From Catenulispora sp. MAP5-51 (GTDB lineage: Bacteria; Actinomycetota; Actinomycetes; Streptomycetales; Catenulisporaceae): a stretch of DNA of 64,000 nt. The position numbers and the translations under genes were made by a program. The stretch is from positions 124,001-188,000 of the forward strand of contig NZ_JBGCCH010000004.1 in assembly GCF_041261205.1 (NCBI RefSeq), given 5' to 3'. This document shows positions 358 to 9,895 of this stretch, in pieces (within the stretch, counting starts at the first letter, position 1; each line of letters begins with the position of its first letter). The notes under the pieces were generated by a model. That model did no database searches. It was not told where the DNA came from and was given only the letters and a program-made list of their open reading frames with translations.

Positions 358-1326
358 ATGATCCGCACAGTCCGGACCCCGGACGGCCGCCGCCTGGCCG
401 TCTGTCAGCGCGGCGACCCCGACGGTGCACCGGTGATGCTGTTCCACGGCACGCCCGGCAGCCGGTTGGGGCCGGTGCCGCGTCCTATGACGCTGCACGC
501 CTGTGGCATCCGCCTCCTGACGTTCGACCGGCCCGGGTTCGGCGAGTCGGACCGGCAGGTAGGGCGGAGAGTCGCCTCGGTTGCGGCGGATGCGTGCACT
601 GTCGCGGATGCATTGGGCATCGATCGCTTCGCCGTTCTTGGGCGCTCGGGTGGCGGTCCGCATGCGCTGGCGTGTGCGGCGCTGTTGCCGGAGCGCGTGA
701 CGAGGGCGGCGGCGATGGTGGCCTTGGCGCCTCGCGATGGCATGGGCGATGCCTGGTTCGCCGGTATGACGCCCGGCAACATCGAGGCCTACACCCAGGC
801 CTTCACGAACCCCGAGGCGCTGCGTCAGGTGCTGGACGACCGCGCGGCGCGGATCCGTGCCGACCCGGCGAGTCTGCTGGCGAACATCGACGAGGGGCTG
901 GAGCCGACCGACCGTGCGGTGATCCGGCAGGCGAATATCCGCAAGGAGCTCGTCGCCGCTTATGCGGCGGCGGTTTCGCGTTCGGCGGATGGTTGGTATG
1001 ACGATGCGATCGCGTTGGCGGCGCCTTGGGGGTTCGATCCCGCTGATATCCGGGTGCCGGTGTACCTGTGGCACGGGGCGGAGGATCGGTTCTCGCCGGC
1101 GAGCCATACGACATGGCTGGGTGAGCGGATTCCGCGCGCGACGGTCGACCTGGAGCCGCGTGCGTCGCATTTCAGCGCCCTGTTGCGGATGCCCCAAGTG
1201 ATCGTGTGGTCGGGTGCACGGGTGTCGTGGGATGCGGCGGTCGGGCTTGGGGTACGGGGGAGAGCGGCTTCGGGGCAGCGTCGGGCGGGGCAGCCGGGTC
1301 GGTTCGTGGATTACCGGAGCTCTTAG
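358..1326 (+). CDS. alpha/beta-fold hydrolase
   Basis: A 322-residue hydrolase of the alpha/beta fold, cytoplasmic (no signal peptide). Visible motifs are the oxyanion segment HGTPGSR (30-36), the nucleophile elbow GRSGGG with Ser97, a probable acid Asp243 (HGAEDRF) and a probable His271 (ASHFSAL). The start at 358 is supported by a GGAGGAG ribosome site just upstream. The fold normally ends soon after the catalytic His, but here about 45 Gly/Arg/Ala-rich residues follow RMPQV, as if an original stop near 1210 was lost. The TAG stop overlaps the stop of fxsT head-on (shared TTAG). The substrate is unknown, and a functional link to the Fxs system is only positional. Confidence 0.8.
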
Positions 1327-4300
1327 TACGCCGTCGCCTCCAGGTCCCTACCGATCCGGGCGCCTGCGCGTACACGGGAGCACACTGGATGGCCTTCGCC
1401 TAGTTGTGCGGTGAGGCGGTCGAGGCAGCGTGCTGTGGTCACCTCTGCCTCCGCTCCGTGTCCCGACGCGCGCAGTGTGGATGCGTGGTTCGCCTCGGTG
1501 ATGAGTGTGTAGACGTGGCCGTCGCCGAGGCGGTCCCGTGAGCCCGCTAGTACGCGTTCCTCTAGAGAGAACGCTGCTGCGAGTTCGCCGTCGTCCGCTA
1601 AGCAGTTCGCGAGGTTGCCCGCTGCCGCCAGGGTGAAGGGGTGGGCGGCGCCGAGTGCGGCCTCGAAGCCGGTCAGGGTTCGCTCGGCGTGGGCTCGGGC
1701 GCGGGGGACGTTGCCGGATGCCCGCTCGTAGACCGCCAGGTTGTTCACTGCTACGAGCGTGTAGGGATGGTGTTCCCCTAGCTGCTCCTCATACGTCGCC
1801 AGACAGGTGGCGCTGATTGTGACGGCCTCCGCGTCCCGGTCTTGTGCGGCCAGGTCTGCGGCGCGGTTCAGGGCGCAGGCGCGCGTGTCGGGGTGAAGGG
1901 GGCCGAAGCGCTGGAGGTAGCGCTCGTAGGTGGCCTCGGTCAGGTCCTGTGCCTCGCTGAGGCGTCCGCATTTGCGGAGCGCTACCGCCAAGCTCTTGGC
2001 CGTCCTTAGCGTTTCCGCGAAGTCGTCCCCTAGCACGTCGCGATACGTGTCCAGCGTTGTGCGCAGTAGTTCGACGGCCTCCGTGAATCGCCCCGCGTCG
2101 ATCATGTCCCGGGCCAGAGACCCCGCGGAGCTCAGCGTGTACGGGTGGCCGGCGCCGAGTACCTCCCGGCGGCGTGCGAAGACCTCACGGTCCATCTCCA
2201 TGGCTTTGGAGAACTCGCCGACGAGCCGGTACGAGATGGCCAGGTTGTTCGCTGAGGACAGTGCCTGTGGGAAGTCCACACCGAAGTTCTCGGCGAACCG
2301 CGCGTATGTCTGTTCGTCCAGTGCCAGGGCCTCCTCGAACCGTCCCAGTCCGCGGAGAGCCGCCGCCAGGCCGCCGGCGGTCATCAGCGTGTGGCGATGA
2401 TCGTTGCCGAGTGCGGCGGCTTGAGCCCGGAGCACGTTTGTGTTGATCTCCCGTGCCTCCTCGAAGCGGCCCATCGACCAGAGCACGTTCGCGGTGTGGA
2501 AGCGCAGGGACAGCAGGTCCGGGTCCGTGTCCGGGGCTCTTCCGCGCGAGGCCCATACCGTGGCCAACTCCTGCGCGAACGCTAAGGCCGCACCGAGTTC
2601 CCCGCGCTTCCACAGATAGCGGACGCGGTCGATCAGCAGCTGGAGGGTCTCGCCCTCGGCGCACAGGCGGGCTCGGCTCGGTCCCAGGTGGGCCCAGATC
2701 TGGTCGTAGCGCGGCCAGTTCTCCGGGTCGTCGGTGTCTCCGGCGCGGGGACGGGCACCGACCAGCATCCGGTGCACCTCGTGGCAGGCCAGCTCCTGGT
2801 CCGCCTCGCTCATTTGGGCCCGGATCACCGACTGCACCAGGCGGTGCACTTGCAGCGTGTTGGAGGCGGCGTCCACGCGCGCCAGGGCGAAGCGCCCGAC
2901 CTCGCGGACCAGGCGGCCGATCATCATCCGGTCGCGCAGCGCCTCGTCGTAGGGGATCAGGGCCTGGATCATCTCGTCCGAGCGCAGCAGTGACATGGAC
3001 ACCGGTTCCGGTGCCAGGAACGAGCACAGCTGTAGTAGCCGGACGGCGGCTGGGGACCGGTCGCGCAGGGATTCGAAGGAGATCGTCCACGTCGTGGCCA
3101 CCGGCACCGGATAGTCCCCGGGCTGGTTCAGCGCCAGTACCGTCGATGCCTGCCGGTCCAGTTCCGCAAGGTACTCGCCGACCGGTGTCCCGGTTTCGGT
3201 GAGCCAGGCCGCCGCCTGCTCCACCGCCAGGGGCAGGTCGCCGAGGGCGACGGCCAGCGCACCGGCGTCTTCCACGGCCAGTCCCGGCACCCGCCGCCGC
3301 AGGTGCTCCACGCTCTCGGTGCGGGTGAAGACCTCTACCTCGACCGGCGCCGCCTCCTGCGCCCAAGCGGGGTGCCGCGATGTGATCAGGACGTGGCCGT
3401 GCCGGCTCTCCGGCAGGTAGGGGCGTACTGCGCTGGGCTCGTCGGCGTTGTCGTAGACCAGCAGCCAGCGGCGTACCGGGTCCCCGCGCCGGAGTGCCTC
3501 AAGGACAGCGGTCGCGGTCTCCGCGATGCCGCTGTCCGCGCGCAGGCCAAGGCCCAGTGGCCGCGCAAGGCGGGCGAGCTCTGCGGGGATCAGCTCCGGC
3601 TGGTCTGCGGAGAGCCACCAGACGAGGTCGTAGTCGCCTTTGAACCGGTGCGCGTACTCCAGGGCGACCTGGGTCTTGCCGACGCCTCCCAAGCCGTGCA
3701 GTGCCTGCGGCGGCGGGGAGCCCGCGGCGGAGCCATGGAGCAGCCGGTCGCGGACGCGTTCCAGGACTTGGTTGCGGCCGGTGAAGGTGGCGTTGCGGCC
3801 GCGCAGGTTCCAGACGCGCGGGTCGACGCCGGGGAAGCGCGGGCCGTGCGTGCGTGAGGAGGGAAGCGCATCGGGGGACCGTGCGCGCCACTGTGCATAG
3901 GCGTTCCGGTCCACGGCTCGTAGGAGCGTTTCCACGGCTTCCGGTTCGCTCAGTCGTGCCAAGTCGATCGTGGGGTTCGCTTGGTACTGCGCCGGTAGCC
4001 GGACGTCCGCGACGAGTACTGCGGTGATGGTTTGTGGCGCTGGTGCGCCCGCAGAGCGTAGGTATGAGTACGACGTTATAGCGAGAACCTGCCGGTCCCC
4101 TTCTGCTTCTGTAGCGTCTTCCACGCTGACGAGATCTGCGGGTACTTCTACCTGCGCCAGGATCTCCCGGACCCAGTCGGCCCACATCCGGTCCTCGGCG
4201 ACGTAGTGGATCAAAGGGCGGACCTTCGTCGTCTGCCGCCTGGTGAACCCCTCCAGGACTCGCTGCCGCCGGGTTTCCTCGATCGCGGGCAGGCCGGTGA

Positions 4301-5219
4301 CGCGACCCACGGTGATCTCGGCGGTGAGCCGTTCGAAGGCCGCCAGCAGCGAGGTCGGCAGGCCGGGCGTGTCGCCGAAGACGGCCAGGGTCTCCTCGTA
4401 GGCGTAGAAGGGCCTATAGGGGATCTCCACGGAGGCCCAGTACTGGGACCGGCGCTCGTCGTCCATATCGGTGGGGAAGCCGTCGAACCGGGACGTCACC
4501 AGTGCGCGTCCGGCGTCCGCCTTCGCCTTCTCCGCCTCGTCCACGCGCATCGGCACCGGCAGGATGCGTATAGGGCGGTCCAGACTGTGCTCCCGCACAC
4601 GCCGCGCCACGGCGAGCGCGCCGTCGATGTTCTGGTCGCTGAGCGCGAAGCAGTCCACGAGGACGTCGGGCAGCTGAAGCGTGCAGATGTCAGCGATGTC
4701 CGACAAGCCGGTGCGGCTGTCGATGAGGACATAGTCGTATGCGGCCTTCATGCCGTCGCGCATCGCCTGGAAGAACAGGCCGCCGCCCATCTCCTCGTAG
4801 AAGTCGTCCCAGCCGCGCGGCGCCATCGCCGAGGCGTAGTCGCGGTTCTGGCGCCCCGCCGGCAGGAAGTCCAGGGCGCCGCCGCCGGGGAACGGCCAGT
4901 CCACGGCCACCGTGTGCCGGGCCACCTCCGCCGCCTGCCGGTGCCAGTCCGTCGGTCGGTCCTCGCGGTGCTGGTGCACCTGCCAGGCGTAGTCGACGAT
5001 CAGGTCGATGACCCCGCCGGTTGACTGCAGCGCCGACGGCGGCAGGAACGGGTGGTAGAAGCGGTGCAGTCCCGGTGAGTCCAGGTCCCAGTCCACGGCC
5101 AGCACCCGTCGGCCGTTCGCGGCCAGGATCCATGCCACGTTCGCCAGCGCCATCGTGCGGCCGGTGCCGCCCTTGTAGGAGTAGAAGGTGATGACGGTGC
5201 CGTCCGGATCAGGGGACAT
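1323..5219 (-). CDS. fxsT: FxsT: P-loop/TIR-like/NB-ARC/TPR protein of the FxSxx-COOH system
   Basis: 1298 residues. Residues about 1-330 are a ParA/MinD-like ATPase (deviant Walker A KGGTGRT at 16-22). Residues about 340-460 look TIR-like. About 480-830 is an NB-ARC NTPase with [16 protein letters not shown] and LITSRH motifs. From about 850 to the end come kinesin-light-chain-type TPRs of roughly 42 residues. The family is the 'FxSxx-COOH system tetratricopeptide repeat protein'; its biochemical role is not established. The architecture resembles STAND/NLR signalling proteins, so a regulatory or sensing role is inferred. The ATG at 5219 has an AGGAGG-like site 8 nt upstream; an upstream in-frame ATG at 5300 lacks one. 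Its 5' end overlaps fxsC by 11 nt, implying translational coupling. Confidence 0.88.
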
Positions 5220-6300
5220 CGGGCGCTCCTCCTGGCGGTCGCTCGGCGGGGGGAAGGGAGCGCAGACGGGGAGGCCGTGCGGAGCGGCCGTCCGGAGCAT
5301 AGGGCGTCAGGTGCCGTAAGAGTGCCGCCTTGGCGGCGGGGTGCACCTCTCGGAAGTAGAAGTCGTCGAAGTCCGCGGACGCGACCTGGTAGGGCCGAGT
5401 GACGAACCACTCCGCGAGCTTCACTTGTGCGACGCGGATATATGCGATCACTGCTTCGTCCGGCGAACCAGTCGAAGTGTCGGGGAGATCGGGGAGTGGT
5501 TCGACCATCGGAGTGCCCGAGGCCTCTGGAGCCTTCTGAGTGCCCGCCGGCAGTGCGAGCGGGCGCCGTCCCGGCAACGACAGGGGAGTGCGACCCCCAA
5601 CCCGGCGCACCAGGTCTCCGGCGGCGTCGAAGAGCCCTTCGGCGTTCTCGAAGCGGTTGCGTAAAGCCCTGAAGTCCACCGGGAGGGACGCTTGCGGAGC
5701 GCTGCTCAGAGCTACCCGTACTACCTCGCGCGCCAGCGCGTGGATCGCCAGCTGGTACTCGTCCTTGAAACGGGCCAGCCGGATGAGCTGCAGGAAGCCC
5801 AGGCGCGCGTAGGCCTCGCCAAGGGTGTGGTGGTCGAATTGCAGCGCCTGCGCGGCGGCCGGCAGGTCGGTGTCCGGCATCGGCAGCCACAACACCGGGA
5901 TGATCGCCTCGGGCCGGGTGCCGGAGGTCAGCTCGTGCGCGCTCTGCCGTGCCTGGAACAGGTACCACTCGCTGGCGCAGCTCAGAGATGTGAAGTAGCG
6001 CGGCGTGTAGAGCGGCACGAAGACCCGGCACGCCGCCAGCGCCTCCGATATCCGGCGCGGCCACTCCTGCCCGACCCGCAGTTCGCGGTCCATGAACCCG
6101 GGCCTGGCGTGCCGGGGGAGCGTGGTGAGTTCCGCGACCTCGAATGTCAGGTCGTCGAAGAAGCGCAATGTCCACCGGTCCGGGTCCTCTGCCGTACCGG
6201 ACTTGTCCTCCGGCGCGCGGTGGTGCCGGGCGTAGCTGAGGAAGAAGACGGGAGCCGACCCGTGGTCGGCGCCTAGCGGCACCCGACTCGAGACAGCCAT
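5209..6300 (-). CDS. fxsC: FxsC: TIR-like protein of the FxSxx-COOH system
   Basis: 363 residues. The N-terminal 200 residues have a TIR-like beginning, FFLSYARHH (19-27), then a conserved [17 protein letters not shown] strand and CASEWYLF. The C-terminal part ([20 protein letters not shown], then a [12 protein letters not shown] segment) matches my recollection of the FxsC-specific C-terminal domain. TIR domains act in protein association or NAD cleavage; which applies here is unknown. It lies 91 nt downstream of fxsB and overlaps fxsT by 11 nt. The ATG at 6300 has only a weak GGGGTAGG upstream. A pure TIR NADase effector is an alternative reading. Confidence 0.86.
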
Positions 6301-6391: not shown

Positions 6392-8803
6392 TCAGACCTT
6401 GGATGTCCAACCTTCCACCGTGGTCCGCAGCGCCTCCACGAAGCGCAGACCGAGCGGGGTCAGGGAGCCGGAGTCGGCCAGGACTTGTGTGGCCCGCAGG
6501 GTGTGTCCGAACCAGAGTGCGAACTCCGTACCGGCGTGTGCACGTTCCTCGGGGTCGGTCGCGGTGAAGCGGCGGACGCGCCAGAAGTCGGTGACGCCGA
6601 CGTGCGCGTACGTTCCCTGCAGCAGTCCCTCCAGGGGGCGTGGGTCCTCCCGCCACGGCGCCTCGAACAGTCGGGTGTCGTGCGGATCGTGCAGGTCTGT
6701 CATGTCCAGCACCGCGCCGAGCTTCACGTGCTGGAACTCGTGGATCATCAGGAGCGCCAGCGCGGAGGCGGAGCGATCTGGCGTTGCGGGGCCCAACACG
6801 GGTAGTGCCGCACCGATCGCGCCATAAGCGCGGCGCGCTGTGGAGCTGACGGCTCGGCCGGACAGGGACGGTGCCAGCGGCACGATCGTCGACAGTCCTG
6901 CGGCGATGCCCGGCGCGTAGGAATGGTGGTCTCGCGCGAGCAGGTCCCACGCTGCGGGGATGGTGCGGGTCCAAGCTGCGGCGTCGGCTTCGGGCAACCG
7001 TTGCGCGACCTCCCAGTGATGGCAGCGGCGGAACGGGTCCGTGTCCTCCAAAACGATTCCGCCTGTGGAGAACGCAGGAAGGACCACGCGCCGGACGCCT
7101 TGCCATCCCGACGCATTGAGCACGTCGCAGTGGCCTTCGGAGATCCGCACCGTCAGGGACCGGCCCGCGTCGGCGCCGACCACCAGACGCCCCAGCGTGG
7201 GGAGGTACACGGCGCCCCGCCGTACTGGCACTTCCATCTCGGCGTCGACGCCGGCGTGGATGGCGATCGCGGCTGCCAGCGAGGCCAGGTGGGCGAAGTC
7301 TTCGGGCTCAGCTCGGCCGGACTGCGCGTCGTCGAGGCAGCGCAATGCCCAGACCGACGTATAGGGATGCCCGAGTACGTCGTGCAGGGCGTTCTTGTTT
7401 CCGGCATCGAGGGTCTTCAGCGTGGAGATCGCGGAGTCCACGAGTTCTTGGCGCGATCCGCTGTTGCCGTCCGCTGCGGCGAACACCTTGGCGAGCAACA
7501 GCATGCGGAGTGAGCGGTGGAAGCGGTTCAGGTGTGCGATCGCCTTAGCGTCGCCATATCCGTGCGCCAACTGATGCAGCACATCTGCGGGCAGCCCTAG
7601 AGTGCGCTGCGCCGGAACCCGCGCGACAGCCGGTGCCTGGGCTCGGGCCCGGATCCCCATGATCAGCTCCTTGAGGTCCTTGCAGTAGACACTCGGATGA
7701 TCAAACGAATCGGTCGAGGGAGCGGCGGAGGCCGCCTCGGCGGGAGCGCTATAGCGATGGGTCCGTAGGCCTCCCCCGCATACCGAGACCACAGGACAGC
7801 GTCGGCAGGTTTCGCACAGGTCAGCCAAACCGTGGCGCCGCGCCTCGAAGCCCGGATGCCCGGAGGCCTCGTCGAAGGAGTGCTCGGCGACAGTGAAGCC
7901 GGTGGCGGGAGCGCCGTCGTAAGCCGCCTTGAGAGAGTCGGTCTGCTCAAGCGTTCCGTCCGACTCCACGACCACCAGATCGACCGGGTCCAGGCCGAGC
8001 GACTCCGTCCCGCTCGGCAGCCCGCGGAAGGCGTCCAGGACCGAGGTGAAGGAGCGGATCGGGAAGGGGCGGTTCTCGGCGTTCCAGCGATCGAACACCG
8101 CGAGCATCCAGTCTGCGTATTCGGCGTGGTCGGGATTCGCCCTGAGCGGTGGATCGCTATGCGTGGCGTGGGGGAGGAGGAAGTCGGCTCGCGGGGGAGA
8201 GGCCTCGCGGACCGCCTTGTACACCGCCACCGGGTCGTTGCGTACGTCGATGGTGCATAGGACGCCCGCGTAGATGTCCGGGTAGTCGTCGCGTAGTAGC
8301 GAAACCGCGCGTAGAGCCTGCATATGGCTGGACGCTCCATTGGCGAAGCGCCGATGTCTGTCGGACGCTGTGCGATCGCCGTCCAGGGACACACCGACGC
8401 GTACGCGGTGGTCGCGGAACAGGTCGCAGTACTCGCGTGTGAGCCGGACCCCGTTGGTATGGACACGTAGGTCCACCGCACAGCCCGCGCTCTCGATGAC
8501 CTCACGCAGCGTCGCCACTATGGCGCGCATACGCGCCGGCCCCAGAAGCAGCGGCTCCCCGCCGTGCAGTACCAGGGCGACGGCAGGGAGGCGGTGCGCC
8601 GCGGCGTGTTCGGCGATCCGCTCTGCGGTCCGCCGTACCGTCTCCTCCGTCATGAAGCGCGGTTTATGACGCCATGAGCTGTCGGCGGCCTCGTAGACGT
8701 AACAATGATCACAAGCGAGATCGCACCGGCTCGCCACTTTCAGGACGAACTGCCGGAACGGCGGCGCCCCGTAGGAGGGGGCCACGGCCCCGCGCTCCGT
8801 CAT
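6392..8803 (-). CDS. fxsB: FxsB: radical SAM/SPASM peptide maturase fused to a HExxH domain
   Basis: 803 residues in two parts. The N-terminal half is a radical SAM enzyme with CxxxCxxC at Cys27, Cys31 and Cys34 to bind a [4Fe-4S] cluster, and a SPASM-type cysteine set at 330, 333, 336, 342 and 374 for auxiliary clusters. Characterised FxsB enzymes install a three-residue cyclophane on the Phe of FxSxx in FxsA. The C-terminal half (about 400-803) has HEFQH at 688-692, the HExxH modification domain found fused or next to FxsB proteins; related HExxH enzymes have been linked to 2-oxoglutarate-dependent peptide beta-hydroxylation. The ATG overlaps the fxsA stop as ATGA, so precursor and maturase are translationally coupled. 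Confidence 0.92.
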   Translation of the reverse strand: MTERGAVAPSYGAPPFRQFVLKVASRCDLACDHCYVYEAADSSWRHKPRFMTEETVRRTAERIAEHAAAHRLPAVALVLHGGEPLLLGPARMRAIVATLREVIESAGCAVDLRVHTNGVRLTREYCDLFRDHRVRVGVSLDGDRTASDRHRRFANGASSHMQALRAVSLLRDDYPDIYAGVLCTIDVRNDPVAVYKAVREASPPRADFLLPHATHSDPPLRANPDHAEYADWMLAVFDRWNAENRPFPIRSFTSVLDAFRGLPSGTESLGLDPVDLVVVESDGTLEQTDSLKAAYDGAPATGFTVAEHSFDEASGHPGFEARRHGLADLCETCRRCPVVSVCGGGLRTHRYSAPAEAASAAPSTDSFDHPSVYCKDLKELIMGIRARAQAPAVARVPAQRTLGLPADVLHQLAHGYGDAKAIAHLNRFHRSLRMLLLAKVFAAADGNSGSRQELVDSAISTLKTLDAGNKNALHDVLGHPYTSVWALRCLDDAQSGRAEPEDFAHLASLAAAIAIHAGVDAEMEVPVRRGAVYLPTLGRLVVGADAGRSLTVRISEGHCDVLNASGWQGVRRVVLPAFSTGGIVLEDTDPFRRCHHWEVAQRLPEADAAAWTRTIPAAWDLLARDHHSYAPGIAAGLSTIVPLAPSLSGRAVSSTARRAYGAIGAALPVLGPATPDRSASALALLMIHEFQHVKLGAVLDMTDLHDPHDTRLFEAPWREDPRPLEGLLQGTYAHVGVTDFWRVRRFTATDPEERAHAGTEFALWFGHTLRATQVLADSGSLTPLGLRFVEALRTTVEGWTSKV

Positions 8804-8997
8804 AAGGCCGAGTTGAACGACGCGGCCACCGGCACCGTCGCGGTGCCGCCGTCCCGGGGTGGGTTGACCCGCCGGTCAACGTCCTCCGACCGCACCTCGC
8901 CGGCCGATACCGAGCGTGAGACGTCGGTCAAGGACTCCTCGCTCAGGTCCACGAGACCGGAGGTGACACTTGTCGTCTTGCCGTGGCGGTGCTTCAT
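8800..8997 (-). CDS. fxsA: FxsA: FxSxx-COOH cyclophane RiPP precursor peptide
   Basis: 65 residues starting MKHRHGKTTSV. The middle holds a leader-like GLVDLSEESLTDVS segment, which resembles the conserved leader of the family, and the C-terminus is exactly F-N-S-A-L, the FxSxx-COOH signature. The precursor is expected to be cross-linked at its C-terminal Phe/Ser region by FxsB. The start at 8997 is preferred over an in-frame ATG at 9069 because GGGAG lies 8 nt before it. The last codon is TTA (Leu), forced to end in A by the ATGA overlap with fxsB. The roughly 150 nt upstream show no convincing -35/-10 pair; a terminator for the gene behind lies at 9145-9182. Confidence 0.88.
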   Translation of the reverse strand: MKHRHGKTTSVTSGLVDLSEESLTDVSRSVSAGEVRSEDVDRRVNPPRDGGTATVPVAASFNSAL

Positions 8998-9144
8998 CCG
9001 TGGCTCCCGATGGGGCGGTTCACACGTTGTCGCGCATGGCGATTCATTGCGCCTTCGTGCCGTCCGCATGCGAAGAGGTGCGGATAATCGCTCCCAGGGG
9101 GGATTCCTCTTTTCGTCGGGTTATGAGACATCGGAAAGGCAGAA

Positions 9145-9182
9145 AGGCCCCTGGCATGCGCGCGGGCGCATGCCAGGGGCCT
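9145..9182 (-). terminator. intrinsic terminator after the secreted repeat protein gene
   Basis: A perfect 17-bp stem (9145-9161 with 9166-9182) and a 4-nt GCGG loop start 23 nt downstream of the stop at 9206. On the minus strand it is followed by only a short T-rich stretch (TTCTGCCTTT), so it may act as a U-poor actinobacterial terminator. It insulates fxsA from read-through. Confidence 0.8.
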
Positions 9183-9205
9183 CGGGGAAGGGTCGTTCCG
9201 CCGGG

Positions 9206-9895
9206 CTAGAAGCTGCCGAGCGAGGTCAGGCTGCCGACCGGCAGGCCCGAGGTCAGCCCGCCGACCAGCGGCAGGCTTCCGACCAGCGGCAGCTGGCTCT
9301 GCGGCTTGGGCGCGGCGGCCGGGGCCGGCATCGGCGCGGCCGGGGTGATCGTCGGGGCGGTGACCGCGGGCGCGACCGGAGCGACCATCCGGCTGCGGGT
9401 GCCGGGGTGCGCGGGCTTCATCAGGGCCGGAGGGGTCGGCATGTGCGGGGGCGGGAAGGCGGCCTTCAGGTCGGAGCCGGCCTGCTCGCCGGCGGCCTGG
9501 GCGGTCGGCGCGGTGGGGGCGGGCTCGCCGGTCAGCTGGCCGACCACCGGCAGGTTCTGGGCCATCGGCCCGACCACCGGCACCTGGCCGGCCAGCCCGC
9601 TCACCGGCAGCCCGCCGGCCAGGCTGTTCAGCGGCAGGGCGTTGGCCAGGCCGCCGTTGATCGGCATGATCGAACTCAGTCCGGCCACCGGCAGCGCGGA
9701 GCGGGTCACGGGCAGTGGCGCGGCGGCCAGCCCGGTGGCGTCGGCGACGGTGGTCGAGATCGGCGCGGCGTCCAGCGGAGTGCTGGTCGTCGGTGCGGTC
9801 GCCGCGGAGGCGGCGCCGCCGACGACGGGACCGGCGGCCATGGCGGCCGCCGTGACGACCAGGCCGCGCCGGACCGTGGTGCTCAAGGTGCTCAT
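9206..9895 (-). CDS. secreted Pro/Ala/Val-rich repeat protein of unknown function
   Basis: 229 residues. An N-terminal signal peptide (RRGLVVTAAAMAAGPVVGGAASA, cleavage near 32) has a twin-Arg-free Sec type. The mature part is low-complexity with recurring LPV.G / VPVVG / LPLVG units at both ends and a Pro-rich, His-containing centre (FPPPHMPTPPALMKPAHPG). No catalytic motif is visible. It may be a cell-wall or surface-associated protein, but this is a guess. The ATG at 9895 is supported by a GAGGAG site. It stands alone with its own strong terminator. Intergenic 9896-10043 shows no clear promoter to me. Confidence 0.75.
   Translation of the reverse strand: MSTLSTTVRRGLVVTAAAMAAGPVVGGAASAATAPTTSTPLDAAPISTTVADATGLAAAPLPVTRSALPVAGLSSIMPINGGLANALPLNSLAGGLPVSGLAGQVPVVGPMAQNLPVVGQLTGEPAPTAPTAQAAGEQAGSDLKAAFPPPHMPTPPALMKPAHPGTRSRMVAPVAPAVTAPTITPAAPMPAPAAAPKPQSQLPLVGSLPLVGGLTSGLPVGSLTSLGSF

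What the first reader, a model, noticed from the sequence alone, without database searches (positions are those of the whole stretch)
6392..8803. Two modification enzymes in one FxsB chain
FxsB contains the CxxxCxxC radical SAM motif (27/31/34), SPASM cysteines (330-374) and HEFQH at 688-692. A single protein that could first cross-link and then oxidise the same short core would leave a doubly modified product.
Basis: partly seen in the sequence, partly recalled or inferred. Interest (0 to 1): 0.65.

Follow-up and report, generated by a model that had tools for sequence, protein, structure and literature searches.

The report
Fused peptide cross-linker and oxygenase

Summary
The N-terminal half is FxsB (TIGR04269, 525 bits, cut-off 370); the C-terminal half is an alpha-ketoglutarate/HExxH peptide beta-hydroxylase domain (TIGR04267, 148.7 bits, cut-off 40) whose model resembles two solved members, SjiH (Z 48.6) and the HExxH half of the fused enzyme ChlB (Z 29.8). 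The substrate gene fxsA overlaps fxsB by 4 bases and ends ...VAASFNSAL.

Arg722 is kept in 166 of 166 distinct relatives with HExxH and 0 of 30 fused relatives that lost it. In a class-wide sample, 66 of 110 FxsB genes have HExxH as a separate neighbouring gene. Both fit two enzymes in one chain.

The kind is known: Morishita et al. 2024 (seen only through citing papers). Open: which residue is oxidised, and what the peptide does. An intact HExxH domain goes with small residues before the Phe, not with the middle residue of FxS, but independent contrasts are too few to decide.

The parts
6392..8803 (-). fxsB-HExxH fusion gene, 803 aa (P0001)
7649..8758 (-). radical SAM/SPASM half, residues 16-385 (TIGR04269 match)
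   Evidence: model range 12-395 matches ChlB 9gmc_C, Z 41.8, 362 aligned
8702..8725 (-). CxxxCxxC, residues 27-34 (CDLACDHC), site of the radical SAM 4Fe-4S cluster
   Evidence: 28 of 28 conserved
7682..7807 (-). SPASM cysteines C333, C336, C342, C374
   Evidence: 28, 28, 28 and 24 of 28; ChlB has the same four aligned
6395..7594 (-). HExxH oxygenase half, residues 404-803
   Evidence: TIGR04267 best stretch 617-792; 22nu/22ob E 2.4e-78; Z 48.6 to 22ob, Z 29.8 to 8s5f
6728..6742 (-). HEFQH, residues 688-692, presumed iron ligands
   Evidence: class defined by it
6638..6652 (-). REDPR, residues 718-722; Arg718/Arg722 are candidates for holding alpha-ketoglutarate
   Evidence: R722 166 of 166 with HExxH, 0 of 30 without; shared with ChlH; role inferred
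8800..8997 (-). fxsA precursor, 65 aa, start ATG 8997 with GGGAG at 9008-9004; stop overlaps fxsB start (ATGA)
   Evidence: start codon chosen by me from the sequence; no NCBIfam match at E 10
8803..8829 (-). C-terminal core VAASFNSAL (FxSxx-COOH)
   Evidence: same class of core upstream of most fused relatives
5209..6300 (-). fxsC, TIR-like protein
   Evidence: NF040588 198.8 bits, cut-off 130; TIR_2; found in 72 of 80 loci L005-L084
1323..5300 (-). fxsT: ParA-like AAA + STAND/NB-ARC + TPR
   Evidence: NF040586 1036.8 bits, cut-off 300; NF047398 138.4 bits, cut-off 90; found in 74 of 80 loci

Best explanation
The protein is a two-enzyme maturase of the FxSxx-COOH peptide system. The radical SAM/SPASM half takes the precursor FxsA (65 aa, ending VAASFNSAL) and forges a C-C bond between the Phe ring and the beta carbon of the Ser two residues on, giving a three-residue cyclophane. 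The HExxH half, an iron/alpha-ketoglutarate oxygenase, then hydroxylates the cross-linked peptide at or next to this ring, most likely at a beta carbon. Fusion keeps the first product close to the second active site. Shown here: the two domains, their conserved residues, the precursor and the operon. Inferred from relatives: both reactions and their order. Not known: the oxidised residue and what the peptide does; the TIR-like and STAND-TPR neighbours suggest a signal or effector in a conflict (defence-like) system, as Kaur et al. 2020 proposed.
For: TIGR04269 525 bits over cut-off 370 and TIGR04267 148.7 over 40; the inactivated-form model NF040587 stays under its cut-off, 157.5 of 225. Solved neighbours by sequence and by model: ChlB, ChlB's HExxH domain titled an alpha-ketoglutarate dependent oxygenase, SjiH-Ni. 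Arg722, not used to define the classes, is kept in 166 of 166 distinct HExxH-bearing relatives and 0 of 30 fused relatives without HExxH, 9 of these by deletion. The domain occurs as a separate gene beside standalone FxsB in 66 of 110 loci of a class-wide sample (67 after mending one misread locus). FxSxx endings sit in the upstream window of 141 of 221 loci; 141 of 746 ORFs there against 40 of 30,079 elsewhere. A review passage reports MscB joining C4 of Phe to C-beta of Ser; that MscB is of the FxsB family is my recall. The published fused enzyme beta-hydroxylates Asp and His and depends on a pre-formed cyclophane (passages).
Against: No product of this protein is known. Identity to ChlH is low: 16-19% over the domain, phmmer E 0.00057. 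Cores of HExxH-bearing and HExxH-lost systems do not differ in the middle residue (50 of 57 against 15 of 20 distinct cores with Asn/Gln, p 0.28), which is against the simplest guess for the site. HExxH domains have been lost at least three to four times while FxsB persists, so the second step is dispensable in some lineages. Members of this enzyme family can also cleave peptides.
Confidence: 0.78

Rival explanations
1. The HExxH half oxidatively cleaves or alpha-hydroxylates the FxsA backbone at the small residues just before the Phe (VAAS-F here, VAA-F in most relatives), freeing the cross-linked C-terminal peptide, as PosC/PflC do at Ala.
For: With HExxH intact, the residue before Phe is Ala/Gly/Ser in 103 of 111 cores against 2 of 29 without; the one before that is Ala in 100 of 111 against 3 of 29; distinct cores 50 of 57 against 2 of 20 and 48 of 57 against 3 of 20 (without repeated loci 98 of 105 and 94 of 105). 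PosC cleaves oxidatively at Ala, with small side chains favouring cleavage (passages). No other protease gene was identified among the genes I scanned beside fxsB.
Against: Only 3 supported (5 in all) independent contrasts, which cannot reach 0.05; the split is mostly one Streptomyces-like clade against the rest. Arg, Lys, Glu and Pro also occur before Phe with HExxH intact. The lost clade keeps small Ser in second place (14 of 26). The same pattern would arise from a recognition motif or from a separate protease site.
Confidence: 0.1
2. The HExxH half is a zinc metallopeptidase that cuts FxsA by hydrolysis.
For: Kaur et al. 2020 described a zincin-like metallopeptidase that cleaves FxSxx precursors (passages); PflC shows some hydrolysis without leader.
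Against: Family profile, solved relatives titled alpha-ketoglutarate oxygenase, and the Arg722 co-loss.
Confidence: 0.06
3. The HExxH half is a structural or substrate-binding remnant, and only the cross-link is made.
For: 30 fused relatives keep the domain without HExxH, so a non-catalytic use exists; NCBI keeps a model for such forms.
Against: The window copy keeps H688, E689, H692, W717, R718, D720, R722 and G730, unlike those forms.
Confidence: 0.05

Closest known systems
SjiH / the Sji radical SAM protein (PDB 22nu, 22ob)
   Same: HExxH domain of the same length and fold: 44% identity over 380 aligned, Z 48.6; the depositor's chain name is radical SAM core domain-containing protein.
   Different: The FxsA core of this window was not compared with its substrate.
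ChlB fused radical SAM/alphaKG-HExxH protein (Morishita et al. 2024; PDB 8s5f, 9gm3, 9gmc)
   Same: Same two domains in the same order in one chain; HExxH and PWRED-x-RP shared.
   Different: 16-19% identity in the HExxH half; hydroxylates Asp/His while this core is FNSAL; cyanobacterial by the PDB chain name (Chlorogloeopsis).
NCBIfam FxsBH, inactivated beta-hydroxylase extension form (NF040587)
   Same: Same domain order and operon type.
   Different: Lacks HExxH and Arg722; the window scores 157.5 against a cut-off of 225.
FxSxx peptide-processing module of VMAP/AP-ATPase conflict systems (Kaur et al. 2020)
   Same: FxSxx precursor, radical SAM/SPASM enzyme, HExxH protein, TIR and STAND-TPR genes (passages).
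   Different: There the HExxH protein was read as a peptidase in its own gene; here it is fused and reads as an oxygenase.

Membership tests
FxsB (TIGR04269) cyclophane-forming radical SAM/SPASM maturase | Profile score over the curated cut-off | tested here: met
   525 bits, cut-off 370
FxsB (TIGR04269) cyclophane-forming radical SAM/SPASM maturase | CxxxCxxC and SPASM cysteines conserved with family | tested here: met
   27/31/34 and 333/336/342 in 28 of 28, 374 in 24 of 28
FxsB (TIGR04269) cyclophane-forming radical SAM/SPASM maturase | Adjacent precursor ending FxSxx-COOH | tested here: met
   FNSAL, overlapping fxsB; no NCBIfam precursor model hit
FxsB (TIGR04269) cyclophane-forming radical SAM/SPASM maturase | Forms a Phe-Ser cross-link | not testable with these tools
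   Needs co-expression and NMR/MS
alphaKG-HExxH peptide beta-hydroxylase (TIGR04267) | Profile score over the curated cut-off | tested here: met
   148.7 bits, cut-off 40
alphaKG-HExxH peptide beta-hydroxylase (TIGR04267) | HExxH plus positively charged residues for alpha-ketoglutarate | tested here: met
   HEFQH; R718 and R722. That such charges are expected is from a passage in PMC12614342; which Arg binds was not seen in coordinates
alphaKG-HExxH peptide beta-hydroxylase (TIGR04267) | Fold of ChlB HExxH domain | tested here: met
   Z 29.8, rmsd 2.7, 313 aligned; model pLDDT 90.8
alphaKG-HExxH peptide beta-hydroxylase (TIGR04267) | Alpha-ketoglutarate-dependent hydroxylation | not testable with these tools
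   Needs enzyme assay
Zincin metallopeptidase | Peptidase fold and peptide hydrolysis | tested here: inconclusive
   HExxH is shared with zincins; hydrolysis not testable; the listed structural matches do not exclude a distant zincin relation
Inactivated FxsBH (NF040587) | Score over cut-off, HExxH lost | tested here: not met
   157.5 of 225; HEFQH intact

The most novel reading that the evidence does not exclude
The HExxH half acts on the small residues immediately before the cyclophane (VAA/VAAS-F) and removes the leader by oxidative backbone cleavage, so that one chain both ties the ring and cuts it loose, with no separate protease. In lineages that lost HExxH the pre-Phe residues changed to Thr/Ile and release would need another enzyme.
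Probability: 0.09. Interest if true: 0.6.

Novelty: new member of a known kind. Interest (0 to 1): 0.27.

Why it matters
The fusion itself is known, so the window adds an actinobacterial example with its precursor, operon and active-site residues named. What is useful is a test bed: relatives in which the oxygenase is intact and fused, intact and separate, dead but still fused, or missing, with matching precursor cores. This makes it directly testable which residue the second enzyme touches and whether it hydroxylates or cuts. If the peptide turns out to be the trigger or effector for the TIR and STAND-TPR partners, the modifications would matter for a bacterial conflict system; nothing here shows that.

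Tried and rejected
Hydroxylation of the middle core residue (Asn/Gln of FNS/FQS) was my first guess. It failed the comparison: active 104 of 111 against 18 of 29, distinct cores 50 of 57 against 15 of 20, p 0.28. Three HExxH-bearing fused systems even have FSS cores (L115, L123, L240), where a beta carbon already bears oxygen. It is not excluded.

A chance HExxH was considered: the motif alone turns up in 1,629 of 20,000 shuffles, so it was dropped as an argument in favour of profile, fold and conservation.

Anti-phage annotation: PADLOC gave only viperin-type radical SAM similarity for FxsB (pVip, 37 bits) and PDC-M28B for the ParA-like part of FxsT (79 bits), none for FxsC. I do not call it a defence system.

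Listed structural neighbours of the domain after SjiH and ChlB are helical-bundle rows at Z 8.4 and below; no peptidase stood out in the rows shown, which proves nothing about distant kinship.

Literature: FxsB was in none of the 9 papers listed of 11; FxSxx-COOH in 2 papers; SjiH in none on this subject among the 15 listed of 45. The library lacks most subscription journals; Morishita 2024 is not held, so absence from print is not claimed. No sigma-70-like promoter or terminator was found at 8600-9300.

Rows and weaknesses in the counts: L001-L003 were dropped as copies of the window's own genome loci. L107, L110, L112, L114, L118 and L120 repeat L030, L022, L055, L028, L010 and L056 (same genes from two collections); one search recounts without them, giving fused with HExxH 100, fused lost 30, split 66, standalone without a found domain 18. 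L159 was misread: my script took a neighbouring cut gene, and its own FxsB has a separate HExxH gene, so 66 should be 67. L048's apparent core (FPSES) was dropped as a likely chance match. L005-L084 were fetched with patterns that include MIHEFQHV, so they are biased to intact HExxH; 28 loci (L214-L241) were hand-picked from the listed rows. 'Standalone without domain' means no BLAST hit at 1e-5 on the strand in about 4 kb, not proof of absence. Precursors were found in only 141 of 221 loci, mainly in fused systems; 15 of 66 split ones.

Full report
What is there. The stretch 6392-8803 holds a clean 803-residue ORF on the minus strand; the plus strand of that stretch has several stops in the frame given. 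CxxxCxxC is at 27/31/34, HEFQH at 688-692 and the SPASM-type cysteines at 333, 336, 342 and 374. C330 is conserved in only 14 of 28 relatives. NCBIfam places residues 16-385 in FxsB (525 bits, cut-off 370) and 617-792 in the alphaKG-HExxH peptide beta-hydroxylase domain (148.7 bits, cut-off 40); the library's model for inactivated forms stays below its cut-off (157.5 of 225).

The substrate. Directly upstream lies fxsA, read here as 65 residues from ATG 8997 behind GGGAG, ending in VAASFNSAL; its stop overlaps the fxsB start as ATGA. No NCBIfam model matched it at E 10, so it rests on position and pattern. In 221 loci, 141 have an ORF with an F-x-S-x-x end in the window just upstream of FxsB, 141 of 746 ORFs there; all ORFs of 30 or more residues together give 181 of 30,825, so 40 of 30,079 elsewhere. 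Downstream are fxsC (TIR-like) and fxsT (ParA-like AAA, STAND, TPR); homologues lie in 72 and 74 of the 80 loci L005-L084.

Two enzymes. A model of the whole chain (mean pLDDT 82.7) aligns its first half with the cyclophane synthase ChlB (Z 41.8, 362 aligned) and its second with SjiH (Z 47.6) and the HExxH domain of ChlB (Z 29.6). A model of the second half alone (pLDDT 90.8) gives SjiH Z 48.6, 380 aligned, 44% identity, and ChlB HExxH Z 29.8, 313 aligned, 19% identity; the next row is Z 8.4. A profile of 18 relatives finds ChlH at E 2.9e-9, with HExxH and PWRED-x-RP aligned.

Fission and decay. In the class sample of 394 genomes, 79 had an FxsB match. Of 110 loci fetched from it, 14 are fused with HExxH, 13 fused without it, 66 (67 after mending L159) have a separate HExxH gene on the same strand, and the rest showed none. 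The stop of that gene lies 991-2,495 bases past the FxsB stop. Over all distinct sequences, H688, E689 and H692 define the class, but Arg722 does not, and it is kept in 100 of 100 fused and 66 of 66 split relatives with HExxH and in 0 of 30 fused relatives without it, 9 of them by deletion. On a tree of 152 rows, intact and lost states in fused proteins need 4 changes, 3 of them forced by well supported branches; the tree is a quick one with some long rows.

Where does the second enzyme act? With the domain intact, cores read mostly V-A-A-F-[N/Q]-S-S-I; without it, mostly x-S-T-F-x-S-A-L. Small residues before Phe and Ala before that go with an intact domain (103 of 111 and 100 of 111 against 2 and 3 of 29), while Asn/Gln in the middle does not in distinct cores (p 0.28). 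Only 3 supported independent contrasts exist, and a sign test needs six, so this may be ancestry. This window's core is VAAS-F, one residue off the common pattern.

Mechanism. From a review passage, MscB joins C4 of Phe to the beta carbon of Ser; that MscB belongs to FxsB is recalled. From passages on Morishita et al. 2024, the HExxH domain of a fused protein is an iron/alphaKG enzyme that beta-hydroxylates Asp and His and depends on a pre-formed cyclophane. Another member, PosC, hydroxylates Gln and cleaves oxidatively at Ala, and PflC can hydrolyse without leader; a third hydroxylates Pro. The best reading is cross-link, then hydroxylation, with the site open. A peptidase reading exists in print and is less likely on profile, fold and Arg722.

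Novelty. Domains, order and the two-step idea are published or in curated family names. The closest solved HExxH domain was released on 2026-02-11. I file the window as a new member of a known kind. Papers: PMC12636437, PMC13060819, PMC7159879, PMC11002830, PMC9055067, PMC9062424 and PMC12614342 were seen as passages only; Morishita et al. 2024 only as a cited title and others' descriptions.

Noticed in passing
G000 contigs C4 (window), C15:39994-41067, C2:552745-553836 (L242, L243): The genome carries three fused FxsB-HExxH genes over the family cut-off; the C15 copy has a core PVAEFQSSV, and no FxSxx precursor was found within 1.6 kb upstream of the C2 copy.
   Followed up: partly
L104-L106, L108, L109, L111, L113, L116, L117, L121 and others (30 loci): Fused FxsB proteins that lost HExxH yet keep the 330-400 residue domain, so it may serve as a binding module.
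   Followed up: partly
L223, L224: Standalone FxsB nested in the fused clade (L223 in the tree) with cores ending FSSCI and FNSCI: domain apparently deleted, and a Cys gained in the core.
   Followed up: no
window 5209-6300, minus: FxsC keeps SLSCASEW, which resembles the region of the catalytic Glu of TIR NADases (recalled).
   Followed up: no
window 1323-5300, minus: The ParA-like part of FxsT matches PADLOC candidate PDC-M28B (79 bits); in split systems the STAND-TPR match is common (59 of 66) but the ParA-like part is rare (7 of 66).
   Followed up: partly
window 9206-9895, minus: Just upstream of fxsA, a 229-residue Ala/Pro-rich ORF with a signal-like start and repeated LPVVG/LPLVG motifs; no Pfam or NCBIfam match.
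   Followed up: no
L063, L066, L071, L072: A second, standalone radical SAM ORF with CNLAC-x-YCY lies about 3 kb upstream of the fused FxsB in these Kitasatospora/Streptomyces loci.
   Followed up: no
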